Program-made: the position numbers and the translations under genes
In this document: piece by piece, positions 1,777 to 49,053 of the stretch
Layout: every line of letters starts with the position of its first letter
Position numbering within the stretch: the stretch's first letter is position 1
The notes under the pieces: model-generated
The model's database searches: none
Told to the model about the DNA's origin: nothing
The model's input: the letters and a program-made list of their open reading frames with translations, nothing else
IMG/VR virus record: IMGVR_UViG_3300042545_000475
Location: 1 to 51,857 of that record
Length of the DNA stretch: 51,857 nucleotides
Strand: one strand, 5' to 3'
DNA from: a virus

Positions 1777-2223
1777 ATGGACGAACAAGAGCCCAAAAAA
1801 AAGGACCGGAAGCCGTATGTGAAGCCTACGGTCGAAGAATACGAACAGCGGGTTGCGTACGCCGAATTCCTTTTGTGTAGAAGGATTTACAAGTGTGACA
1901 TCAAGCGATTGATGAAGAAAAAGTTTAATGTCACGGCGAGGGCCGTCGAGGACTACCTCTCTCGTGCGAAGGCTAAATTGCGAGACAGGTCGGGAAAGAC
2001 CCGTGCGGAACACCAGATCGACAGCCTTCAGTTCTACGAATCTGTGCTGAATGGCCCTGATTCAACGCTTCGGGACCGCATGGACGCACAGTCCAGAATC
2101 GACAAGCTGATGGGCCTTGAGGATGGCAACACGCCCGGCGGCGGCGTGACCAGTCCGATCATCAATGTGGTCGAGCAGGTCGTGACCAGCCGGGAAGAGG
2201 CCAAGGGGAAGGCCAATGATTGA
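1777..2223 (+). CDS. terS: Terminase small subunit (putative)
   Basis: A 148-residue acidic/basic mixed protein directly upstream of and overlapping the large terminase gene by eight bases. Residues 25-70 (from RVAYAEFLL to EDYLSRAKAKLRD) look like a helix-turn-helix DNA-recognition domain, followed by a helical oligomerisation-like region and a flexible tail that would contact the large subunit. Small terminases bind the packaging site and stimulate the ATPase of the large subunit. Assignment rests on position, size and the N-terminal helix-turn-helix; the sequence family itself is divergent. Confidence 0.75.
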   Translation: MDEQEPKKKDRKPYVKPTVEEYEQRVAYAEFLLCRRIYKCDIKRLMKKKFNVTARAVEDYLSRAKAKLRDRSGKTRAEHQIDSLQFYESVLNGPDSTLRDRMDAQSRIDKLMGLEDGNTPGGGVTSPIINVVEQVVTSREEAKGKAND

Positions 2224-40429: not shown

Positions 40430-40462
40430 TGTGTTGACACACAGGGGTTGGTGTCGTAGAAT
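40430..40462 (+). promoter_or_regulatory. Promoter P4 with operator, divergent region
   Basis: TTGACA at 40434-40439, 17 bases, TAGAAT at 40457-40462, almost consensus. The operator-like TGTGTTGACACACA at 40430-40443 overlaps the -35 and lies seven bases from the - strand -35 of the RHH gene. The stem GCCGG/CCGGC at 40470-40484 would lie at the 5' end of the transcript. Confidence 0.78.
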
Positions 40463-40521: not shown

Positions 40522-41451
40522 ATGTTGAATTTCAGAAAAGCTCAGAAGTCCCGTTCAAAGCTGCGTCTGGCCCTGATTGGCCCGTCCGGTTCTGGCAAGA
40601 CCTACACCGCACTGGCTGTGGCCTGCAATCTGGAGGGCCCTGTTGCGGTGATCGACACCGAGCATGGCAGCGCCAGCAAATACGCCGATCTGTTTGAGTT
40701 CGATGTGCTGGAACTCGACACCTTCAGCCCTGAAACCTATGTGAAAGCGATTCATGCCGCAGTTGCCGCCGGTTACAAAACCGTGGTGATCGACAGCCTG
40801 TCTCACGCATGGTCAGGCAAAGATGGTGCGCTGGAGCAGGTGGACAAAGCCGCAGCCGCAATGCGAACCGCCAACACCTTCGGTGCATGGCGCAATGTCA
40901 CCCCCCTGCACAACCAGCTGATTGATGCCATCGTGGGTGCCGGTTGCCATGTGATTGCCACCATGCGCTCGAAAACCGAGTATGTGCAAGAAAGGGACGA
41001 GCGCACAGGCAAGACCAGCATCAAAAAGGTTGGCCTTGCTGCGGTTCAGCGTGATGGCATGGAATACGAGTTTGATCTGGTGGGCGATGTGAACCTCGAC
41101 CATCAGGTGGTGTTTTCAAAAAGTCGGATTCCGAGCCTTGACGGTGCGGTGGTGACCAAGCCGGGTGCCGGTCTGGCCAAGCAACTGCTTGGATGGCTGG
41201 ACGGTGTTGTGCCGGAAGCAGCGGTGCCTGAGCCACAGGCAGAGGTGCCGGTTGCCGTTGACCCCATCACGCCTCAGCAAATCAAGCAGGTTCAAATTCT
41301 GCTCAAGGAGTTGGGGGGAATCACCGACGAATTGAAAGCGCACATCTACACCCAGTACGGTGTGCAATCGTCCAAGGAGCTTGACAAAAACAGCGGTAGC
41401 CTGCTGATTGAAGACCTTCGCCAGCGTGTAGCCCAAAAGTCACAGTCCTGA
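40522..41451 (+). CDS. Sak4-like RecA-fold ATPase
   Basis: A 309-residue ATPase with Walker A GPSGSGKTYTA near residue 19, VIDTEHGSASKY near 45, TVVIDSLSHAW near 90 as Walker B, and HVIATMRSKTEYV near 145; the last about 75 residues are a separate helical module (ITPQQIKQVQILLKELGG). This resembles Sak4/AAA_24 recombinases that pair single strands during phage recombination with SSB. The leader has AAGGCGA...ACTACG before the ATG, repeated before the ssDNA-binding protein gene. First gene of the P4 unit. Confidence 0.85.
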   Translation: MLNFRKAQKSRSKLRLALIGPSGSGKTYTALAVACNLEGPVAVIDTEHGSASKYADLFEFDVLELDTFSPETYVKAIHAAVAAGYKTVVIDSLSHAWSGKDGALEQVDKAAAAMRTANTFGAWRNVTPLHNQLIDAIVGAGCHVIATMRSKTEYVQERDERTGKTSIKKVGLAAVQRDGMEYEFDLVGDVNLDHQVVFSKSRIPSLDGAVVTKPGAGLAKQLLGWLDGVVPEAAVPEPQAEVPVAVDPITPQQIKQVQILLKELGGITDELKAHIYTQYGVQSSKELDKNSGSLLIEDLRQRVAQKSQS

Positions 41452-41456
41452 CCGTA

Positions 41457-41508
41457 GACGACTGCTGGCTGGTGCTAGCGTGCGAGGGTTCGATTCCCTC
41501 CGGTTGTC
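41457..41508 (+). ncRNA. Miniature tRNA-like element A
   Basis: Six bases after the ATPase stop. GACGACTG (41457-41464) pairs over 8 bp with CGGTTGTC (41501-41508, two G-U), like an acceptor stem. CTGG-CTGGTG-CTAG (41465-41478) can form a D-arm with GG in the loop. GAGGG-TTCGATT-CCCTC (41484-41500) is a perfect T-arm with a canonical T-loop. There is no anticodon arm; only CGTGC links D- and T-parts. A similar element is at 49008-49053. Confidence 0.6.
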
Positions 41509-41510
41509 AT

Positions 41511-41536
41511 GCCAGACCTCTACATCTGGCCTTTTT
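41511..41536 (+). terminator. Rho-independent terminator after ATPase/tRNA-like element
   Basis: GCCAGA at 41511-41516 pairs with TCTGGC at 41525-41530 (6 bp, loop CCTCTACA) and is followed by CTTTTTG and another T-rich run. It lies directly after the tRNA-like element, so the transcript would end with it. Confidence 0.75.
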
Positions 41537-41569
41537 GTGGTTTTTCAAAATCTGTTTTTGGAGCATCCT

Positions 41570-43099
41570 ATGTCTGATCGAACTTGGACGGTTGAACAAA
41601 GCGCCATTTTTAGCGCCATTGCCGACACGCAGGACAATCTGACCATCAATGCGGTGGCAGGCGCTGGCAAAACGACGACAGCCGTGGAAGGCGCACGCCT
41701 TGCAGGTGAGGATGTGGGCTTCGCAGCCTTCAACACCCACATCGTCGGTGAACTGAAAACTAAGCTGCCTGAGACAGCGACAGCCGCCACCATGCATTCG
41801 TATGGTCTACGCCTGCTTGGCAGTCGGTTTGGTTCCACGGTGCAGGAACACAAGGCCCGCAATGCTTTGATCCGGTTGCGCCCAAGCTGGCATTTTGCCA
41901 GCCGCAAGTCTGGAAGGCTCTGCCTTGAAGACAAATACAATTCGGTACTGGACATCGTCAGCATGATGAAACAGCAGGGTTTCAACGAGGAAACCACATC
42001 CGAAACTATTGATGCGGAGGCGCTCAGGCAGGGAATTGAATTGCCTGATGGCAAGATTGGCGAGTCGATCCGGTTGGCAGCGGTGGAGTTGTACACCGAC
42101 ACCATCAACGACACAGATGGGGTGGATTTCGATGACATGATCGCCATGCCGATCCGGCACGGTCTTTTGACCTTCCCGATCTACAAGACCATGATGATTG
42201 ACGAGGCGCAGGACCTCAACCCGGCGCAGCAACAACTTGCGCTTGCGCTGGCCGAGCGAAAGATTATTATCGGTGACCCAAGGCAAGCCATCATGGCCTT
42301 TGCCGGTGCTGATTCAAATTCTTTCCACAGGCTGCGTGATGGTCTTGGTGCCACAGAGTTCCCCCTGTCGGTGTGCTGGAGGTGCCCCGGTTCCCACCTT
42401 GCACTGGCTCAAAAACTGGTGCCCAAGATTATGCCGTCTGCGAGTGCCATCGACGGTGATGTTGGTGAGAAAACCCAATTGCAGCTAATCCATTACGCAA
42501 AGCCCGGTGATATGGTGATCTGCCGCAACAATGCACCATTGATCAGCCTTGCTTACAAGATGATTGCCGCAGGCAAACCAGCCTATGTGCGTGGCCGCAA
42601 GATTGGTGAGGGTATCCAGCTTTTGGTGCGAAAGCTGCGGCCCAAGACGCTGATGGACCTGTCGGCCAAGGTTGACCAGTGGAGAGCGCAGCAGGTTGAA
42701 ATCGCCAAGGAAAAGACCCCGCACGATTCCAATGCCGGTCAGCAGTTTGAAGACCGTGCGGACTGCGTCATGACTTTGATTCAGGTGAGCCGTGACCTTG
42801 AACATTTAAAAACACAGTGTGCCAGCCTGTTTGCCGACACGAATGGCGGTAGGATCACTCTGTCGTCAATCCATCGGTCTAAGGGCCTTGAGGCCGACAC
42901 CGTGTGGTTTTACGAGCCCGGCTTGTGCCCATCAAGCCCGGACTTCCAAGAATTGAACCTGCTTTATGTCGCACTAACCCGTGCGAAGAAAAGCCTCTGG
43001 TTCGTCGATCATTCCGTTCGCCGTCTTCACGGCTATTCGGAGTGGGTCAGCAAGGTTGCAGCCGGTCGTGGCCGCAAACAGTTGGCCAGTTTTGTTTGA
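41570..43099 (+). CDS. UvrD/Rep-like superfamily 1 helicase
   Basis: A 509-residue helicase with complete SF1 motifs: Walker A AVAGAGKTTT near residue 27, DEAQ box in MIDEAQDLNPAQQQLA near 210, motif III GDPRQAIMAFAGAD near 235, SSIHRSKGLEADTVWFY near 430, and VALTRAKKSLWF near 465. It unwinds DNA in replication or repair. The start is at 41570 with TTGGAG upstream; the longer GTG frame from 41480 runs through the T-rich tail and is rejected. Confidence 0.88.
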   Translation: MSDRTWTVEQSAIFSAIADTQDNLTINAVAGAGKTTTAVEGARLAGEDVGFAAFNTHIVGELKTKLPETATAATMHSYGLRLLGSRFGSTVQEHKARNALIRLRPSWHFASRKSGRLCLEDKYNSVLDIVSMMKQQGFNEETTSETIDAEALRQGIELPDGKIGESIRLAAVELYTDTINDTDGVDFDDMIAMPIRHGLLTFPIYKTMMIDEAQDLNPAQQQLALALAERKIIIGDPRQAIMAFAGADSNSFHRLRDGLGATEFPLSVCWRCPGSHLALAQKLVPKIMPSASAIDGDVGEKTQLQLIHYAKPGDMVICRNNAPLISLAYKMIAAGKPAYVRGRKIGEGIQLLVRKLRPKTLMDLSAKVDQWRAQQVEIAKEKTPHDSNAGQQFEDRADCVMTLIQVSRDLEHLKTQCASLFADTNGGRITLSSIHRSKGLEADTVWFYEPGLCPSSPDFQELNLLYVALTRAKKSLWFVDHSVRRLHGYSEWVSKVAAGRGRKQLASFV

Positions 43100-48744: not shown

Positions 48745-49007
48745 GTACCCACCACTGGCACCGGCAAGGCATACTTCGTAGTATTGTGGTTGCCTGCTAT
48801 GTCAGGTGTAGGCGTTGTGTCCGGGGGACTGGACTATGACGGCCTACGGTATTTTACGGGGCTAAGTTGCCCCGTAATCCTGATCGATCCCTCGTGCGAT
48901 TGGGAATGTGAAACCGGGGGGAATGTTAAGGACGGCAAACCTTATTGGGTCTAAACATTAAGGCCATTTAGAATATGGCCCCTTCACAAATCGGTGCTAC
49001 TTTCATG
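48745..49007 (+). ncRNA. Structured noncoding segment upstream of tRNA-like element B
   Basis: No gene is seen. Stems: GGCAA/TTGCC (48763-48767 / 48790-48794) around ATACT-TCGT-AGTAT (48771-48784); TTACGGGGC/GCCCCGTAA (48854-48862 / 48869-48877, 9 bp, loop TAAGTT); AATGTT with AAGG/CCTT inside and AACATT closing (48922-48959); GGCCAT/ATGGCC (48962-48980). The density of stems suggests a structured RNA ending in the element B. Confidence 0.5.
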
Positions 49008-49053
49008 TTCGTCGGCTGGTGTGTGCGTTGGGGTTCGATTCCCTGAAGGCGAA
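49008..49053 (+). ncRNA. Miniature tRNA-like element B
   Basis: TTCGTC (49008-49013) pairs with GGCGAA (49048-49053, one G-U), enclosing GGCTGGTG (49014-49021), then a T-arm TGGGG-TTCGATT-CCCTG (49029-49045). The shared GGCTGGTG plus T-arm matches element A at 41457-41508. It lies 32 bases before the sigma factor gene. Confidence 0.5.

What the first reader, a model, noticed from the sequence alone, without database searches (positions are those of the whole stretch)
41457..41508. Miniature tRNA-like element A without an anticodon arm, placed before a terminator
The 52-base element has an 8-bp acceptor-like helix, a GG-containing D-arm-like hairpin, a perfect 5-bp T-arm with TTCGATT loop, and no anticodon arm; only five bases join the D and T parts. 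It follows the Sak4-like ATPase stop by six bases and precedes a terminator, so it could be a 3'-end structure of that mRNA or a small RNA. It could mimic tRNA for RNase P, tRNA-modifying or tmRNA/EF-Tu machinery, or be a degraded tRNA or a phage attachment core.
Basis: partly seen in the sequence, partly recalled or inferred. Interest (0 to 1): 0.78.

Follow-up and report, generated by a model that had tools for sequence, protein, structure and literature searches.

The report
Anticodon-less tRNA mimics punctuating phage operons
The 52-base element is one member of a large, apparently undescribed family of mini-tRNA shapes that viruses of bacteria and archaea place right after a gene's stop codon, probably so that the cell's own tRNA-trimming enzymes cut the long viral message into separate ones.

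Summary
Element A (41457-41508) and a second copy B (49008-49053) fold as acceptor stem + D mini-hairpin (UGGU loop) + T-arm (UUCGAUU loop) without an anticodon arm. A covariance model built only from other viruses finds both (30.7 and 43.9 bits; next 13.5). Across 63 distinct sequences, 13 of 15 pairs show compensatory change (298 cells against 96 in shuffles). The acceptor helix, which was not part of the search pattern, forms in 60% of anchors against 12% with partners swapped, and it usually ends 12-13 nt from the T-loop. That is the tRNA length that RNase P and RNase Z measure. An A and a U usually follow; no CCA is encoded.

Copies lie in the sense strand, just after or on the upstream stop codon and about 20-60 nt before the next start. 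Some phages carry 6-11 copies. Named isolates include marine T7-like cyanophages (before the major capsid gene) and haloarchaeal virus HRTV-27. Some Bacteroidota have one in the 16S-23S spacer.

Best explanation: intercistronic RNase P/RNase Z processing signals, working like mitochondrial tRNA punctuation or mascRNA. Cleavage is inferred, not shown. Attachment-site and degraded-tRNA readings are disfavoured. No Rfam family matches above threshold.

The parts
41457..41508 (+). Element A: anticodon-less tRNA-like RNA (acceptor 41457-41464 with 41501-41508; D mini-hairpin about 41464-41479; T-arm 41484-41500)
41509..41510 (+). A (position of discriminator N73) and U74; no CCA follows
   Evidence: sequence; family pattern
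41511..41537 (+). Hairpin 41511-41530 plus T-rich tail: intrinsic-terminator-like, at the place of the leader hairpin of relatives
40522..41451 (+). Upstream gene, Sak4-like ssDNA-annealing protein family (phrog_124; best match phrog_1366 of unknown function)
40434..40462 (+). Sigma-70-type promoter-like site (TTGACA-17-TAGAAT) before the Sak4-like gene
   Evidence: consensus match only
41570..43099 (+). Downstream gene, DNA helicase (phrog_1967), ATG 61 nt after element A
49008..49053 (+). Element B: second copy (acceptor TTCGTC/GGCGAA, T-arm TTGGGG-TTCGATT-CCCTGA), followed by A-T-T
   Evidence: compensated homologue in L159
49086..49628 (+). Gene after element B, RNA polymerase sigma-factor-like (phrog_351)

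Best explanation
Elements A and B are intercistronic tRNA-like processing signals in a phage transcript. SHOWN: each copy keeps what tRNA 5'- and 3'-maturation enzymes read (elbow: GG of the D-loop plus UUCGAUU T-loop; a continuous acceptor/T stack of about 12 bp; usually A73 then U; no encoded CCA) and drops the anticodon arm. The stems vary by compensatory change. Copies lie in the sense strand at gene junctions, with the upstream stop at or beside the 5' end and a leader hairpin and start codon downstream. INFERRED: host RNase P cuts at the 5' end and RNase Z cuts after N73. This frees a mini-tRNA of about 45 nt and gives the downstream gene its own mRNA with a 5'-terminal hairpin, and the upstream mRNA an end at its stop codon.
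For: Model R1, built without the window, finds A and B. Covariation. Acceptor helix not searched for, yet 60% vs 12% with partners swapped; end at 12/13 nt from the T-loop in 54 of 72; then A 29/54 and U 36/54. Junction position: stop nearby 64% vs 24% control, SD+start 46% vs 16%, both 39% vs 4%; antisense 1%; inside long ORFs 6% vs 47%. Leader hairpin 0-6 nt after N73 in 59% vs 32% in shuffles. Many copies per virus: 11 in G001, 6 in G010, 9 in L167, 6 in L258. Same junction with compensated stems before the capsid gene of cyanophages. Annotated gaps of HRTV-27 begin exactly with the element. Bacteroidota 16S-tRNAIle-tRNAAla-element-23S spacers. Literature: RNase P measures a fixed distance from the elbow; RNase Z clamps the elbow of CCA-less precursors and CCA is an antideterminant (PMC4919913); acceptor/T-stem/T-loop models are cleaved at the canonical site (PMC11143913).
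Against: No cleavage data. In a substantial minority of copies the stop codon lies inside the acceptor 5' strand, so an RNase P cut would leave the upstream mRNA without a stop. Position 1 is often not G. Some copies have no obvious start codon downstream. The element is not kept after the Sak4 gene in its relatives, and cyanophages S-RIP2, S-CBP1 and P-SSP10 have another hairpin at the same junction. Element A is followed by a terminator-like hairpin, so here a 3'-end function is also possible.
Confidence: 0.62

Rival explanations
1. The released mini-tRNA itself is the product: a decoy that binds tRNA enzymes (RNase P/Z, TruB/TrmA, CCA-adding enzyme) or tRNA-cutting defence nucleases; its place between genes is only a convenient way to express it.
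For: Elbow and 12-bp stack are kept precisely; up to 11 copies per phage would give a dose; element A is followed by a terminator, as a small-RNA gene would be.
Against: Does not explain why copies sit at successive gene junctions with stop, leader hairpin and SD at fixed spacing, nor the copies in rRNA spacers. No anticodon, so no decoy for anticodon nucleases.
Confidence: 0.17
2. The element works uncut: a stable 3'/5' roadblock or translation insulator at the stop codon that protects the upstream mRNA end or controls re-initiation on the next gene.
For: Tight link to stop codons, including stops inside the acceptor strand; stable fold; terminator after A.
Against: A plain hairpin would do; nothing in this role needs the tRNA elbow, the 12-13 nt geometry or A73-U74.
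Confidence: 0.13
3. Phage attachment core or degraded tRNA captured from a host tRNA gene.
For: T-arm sequence GAGGGTTCGATTCCCTCCGG also occurs in many genuine tRNAs.
Against: No integrase or resolvase family match in the window. Attachment cores carry one tRNA end, not both acceptor strands. Two copies here and up to 11 elsewhere have different, compensated stems. The anticodon arm is absent in all.
Confidence: 0.03

Closest known systems
Mitochondrial tRNA punctuation and plant-mitochondrial t-elements
   Same: tRNA or tRNA-like structures between genes of a polycistronic transcript, cut out by RNase P and RNase Z (PMC4919922)
   Different: Here in DNA viruses of bacteria and archaea; the element lacks the anticodon arm and carries a UGGU mini-hairpin; cleavage not yet shown
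mascRNA / menRNA (Rfam RF01684)
   Same: Small tRNA-like RNA with T-arm and reduced middle, released by RNase P and RNase Z; element A aligns weakly to this model (21.4 bits)
   Different: Below the gathering score of 42.5; mammalian lncRNA 3' ends, one copy, keeps a third stem
RNase P substrates of phages: phi80 M3 RNA and P1/P7 C4 antisense RNA
   Same: Phage RNAs other than tRNA cut by RNase P (PMC11143913)
   Different: M3 is annotated as a lambda oop homologue without a T-arm, and phi80 gives no element by descriptor or model; single regulatory RNAs, not junction signals
RNase III sites between T7 genes (own knowledge)
   Same: Intercistronic RNA structures that a host RNase cuts to give separate phage mRNAs with hairpin ends
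   Different: Different enzyme and structure; in T7-like cyanophages the tRNA-like element stands before the capsid gene
YrlA bacterial Y RNA (RF02553)
   Same: Bacterial/phage RNA with tRNA-like elbow (own knowledge)
   Different: No YrlA match and no Ro60/TROVE protein in the window; YrlA is not an intercistronic element

Membership tests
tRNA (RF00005) | Cloverleaf with anticodon arm; found by ARAGORN/Rfam | tested here: not met
   no tRNA; 4-5 nt replace the anticodon arm
tRNA (RF00005) | T-arm with TTCRANN loop, GG in D-loop, acceptor+T stack of 12 bp | tested here: met
   (12-13 nt)
mascRNA-menRNA (RF01684) | Score above Rfam gathering threshold | tested here: not met
   21.4 vs 42.5 bits
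mascRNA / t-element / tRNA punctuation (mechanism) | Cleavage by RNase P at position 1 and RNase Z after N73 | not testable with these tools
   geometry, A73-U74 and lack of CCA fit
mascRNA / t-element / tRNA punctuation (mechanism) | Located between genes in the transcript sense | tested here: met
tmRNA (RF00023) | Split tRNA-like domain with tag reading frame | tested here: not met
   only the 18-nt T-arm matches, 16.4 vs 47 bits; both acceptor strands are local
YrlA (RF02553) / Ro60 | Rfam match; TROVE protein nearby | tested here: not met
attP core in a tRNA gene | Integrase in the same genome | tested here: not met
   the record may be incomplete
attP core in a tRNA gene | Identity to a host tRNA 3' end | not testable with these tools
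   host unknown

The most novel reading that the evidence does not exclude
A widespread tRNA-punctuation system in DNA viruses of both bacteria and archaea, in which the stop codon is often built into the acceptor stem. Translation of the upstream gene and cutting by RNase P then exclude each other, and cutting retires the upstream message (leaving it without a stop) while it stabilises the downstream one.
Probability: 0.22. Interest if true: 0.95.

Novelty: new variant of a known kind. Interest (0 to 1): 0.86.

Why it matters
If right, many phages, including abundant marine cyanophages, use the host's essential tRNA-maturation enzymes to cut and shape their mRNAs, much as mitochondria do. It would give a natural minimal RNase P/RNase Z substrate, explain a class of unannotated phage intergenic gaps, and supply a covariance model that can annotate them. 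It would also raise a testable question: what happens when the stop codon is inside the substrate? The cellular cousins in rRNA spacers suggest a route from spacer tRNA to processing signal.

Tried and rejected
attP core (no integrase or resolvase; several copies with different stems). YrlA/Ro60. tmRNA (one pattern hit, L084, is a genuine tmRNA and was dropped). Genuine tRNAs matched by the looser pattern were recognised and left out. phi80 M3 RNA as a member (no). Position after Sak4 conserved in Sak4 relatives (no; one unrelated element in L094). Nucleotide searches for named relatives of G001, G008, L177, L199, L167 and L258 found nothing. Literature searches for phage tRNA punctuation or anticodon-less tRNA-like elements found no report of this family; the library is open-access only.

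Full report
OBSERVATION. The window is a 51,857-base virus record. A fixed descriptor was used: TTCRANN loop, perfect T and acceptor stems, GG in the D region, 3' strand of 11-13 nt. It finds two places in the window, A and B (49008-49053), against 0.2 per shuffle in ten shuffles. In 200 further shuffles none equalled A, and one hit with a TTCGATT loop reached B's score. Neither ARAGORN nor Rfam names them; the nearest Rfam model is mascRNA-menRNA, below threshold.

IT IS A FAMILY. A pattern that leaves no room for an anticodon arm (GGCTGGTGN{6,14}GGGTTCGATTCCC) hits 22 viral stretches but only 5 in the bacterial/archaeal genome collection. The stems around it differ from virus to virus but pair. 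A covariance model from 18 of them, without the window's copies, scores B 43.9 and A 30.7 bits; the next match scores 13.5. Looser patterns gave 143 matches, 88 of which pass the descriptor; many of the listed failures are genuine tRNAs. On 63 distinct aligned members 90% of cells pair (shuffled 59%), 13 of 15 pairs have compensatory changes, and 298 cells change on both sides (shuffled 96; slid structures 48-89). That alignment was fitted to the structure. The first one was made by plain MAFFT and shows the same, including the acceptor helix, whose letters were not searched for. The D mini-hairpin also covaries (UC-UGGU-GA, AC-UGGU-GU, GC-UGGU-GC, CC-UGGU-GG).

GEOMETRY. From 121 anchors chosen without regard to the acceptor, the true flanks form a strong helix in 60%, against 12% when partners are swapped. 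Its outer end lies 12 or 13 nt from the T-loop in 54 of 72, against a broad distribution in the swaps. In these the next base is A in 29 of 54 and the one after is U in 36 of 54; CCA is not encoded. RNase P measures a fixed distance from the elbow, and RNase Z clamps the elbow of CCA-less precursors with CCA as an antideterminant (PMC4919913). Model substrates of acceptor stem, T-stem and T-loop are cut by RNase P at the canonical site (PMC11143913).

PLACE. Among 105 elements the upstream stop lies within -60 to +20 of the 5' end in 64% (random places 24%), an SD plus start follows within 80 nt in 46% (16%), and both hold in 39% (4%). On the opposite strand both hold in 1%. Only 6% lie inside long ORFs (47% at random). 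Several viruses carry series: 11 in G001, all on the coding strand and nearly all followed by TTCC-type hairpins; 6 in G010; 9 in the first 10 kb of L167 and 6 in L258. A hairpin starts within 0-6 nt after N73 in 59% against 32% in shuffles. The window's element A fits: stop ending five bases before it, A-U after it, hairpin 41511-41530, helicase start 61 nt downstream. Element B stands before a sigma-factor-like gene and has a compensated homologue in L159.

NAMED VIRUSES. In marine T7-like cyanophages S-TIP37 and S-RIP1 the element lies between psbA/small ORF and the major capsid gene, unannotated. S-SBP1, P-SSP2 and P-SSP3 have an element of the same build with T-loops TGCAATG or TGCGAGT (read by eye). 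S-RIP2, S-CBP1 and P-SSP10 have a different hairpin at that spot. C. difficile phage phiC2 has one at 53680-53724. Haloarchaeal virus HRTV-27, fetched for another reason, has a looser form that begins at the first base after the annotated stops of gp104, gp102 and gp089, with the next gene 31-36 nt after it; 0 such hits in 100 shuffles. One further HRTV-27 hit (54692-54730) lies inside an annotated gene. In that virus the covariance model R2 sees only one copy, and weakly.

CELLULAR COUSINS. Six genomes of Bacteroidota (Mariniphaga, Maribellus and four relatives found by family search; one of the four, L312, was not confirmed by the descriptor) carry a model match; in those confirmed the element lies after tRNA-Ile and tRNA-Ala in the 16S-23S spacer, a place where RNA processing is the known business.

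MECHANISM. What is kept is what RNase P and RNase Z read. What is dropped is what the ribosome and synthetases read. The place is where a cut would make separate mRNAs, and the leader hairpin would then stand at the new 5' end, a position known to stabilise bacterial mRNAs (own knowledge). I therefore infer intercistronic cleavage. The step not explained is that in many copies the stop codon lies inside the acceptor strand. Either translation and cleavage alternate, or the upstream message is meant to be lost, or the element acts uncut.

LIMITS. No expression or cleavage data were available. The host of the window is unknown. Counts are of sequences, not independent events, and related phages are included. 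The literature library holds open-access papers only, so 'undescribed' means not found there nor in Rfam 15.

Noticed in passing
window 48880-48959: Candidate structured RNA just upstream of element B, conserved in L159 with compensating changes: hairpin CTGATCG..CGATTGG whose loop (TCCC) can pair with a downstream GGGG (pseudoknot; TCTCCA/TGGAGG in L159), then stem AATGTT..AACATT; no Rfam match.
   Followed up: partly
L302-L309, L202, L225 (marine T7-like cyanophages): Glutamine-II riboswitch (RF01704) in nearly all these loci stands before the small ORF whose stop carries the tRNA-like element, followed by a conserved structured leader (..GCCGTCTAGACGGTGGGATAGACCACA) of the major capsid gene.
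   Followed up: partly
L306, L307, L305 near 1500-1560: S-RIP2, S-CBP1 and P-SSP10 replace the tRNA-like element by a different conserved hairpin (GGAGTC..GGCACCTCAGAGTCGGACC..GGCTCC) at the same junction.
   Followed up: no
L154 (Candidatus Jorgensenbacteria MAG), 1864-1907, minus strand: A tRNA-Pro is followed by a mini tRNA-like element and then a terminator-like hairpin.
   Followed up: no
L245 7753-7796 and 9015-9058; L164 2585-2628: Phage loci with similar mini elements (GCTTC..GAAGC), the loci also carrying genuine tRNA genes.
   Followed up: no
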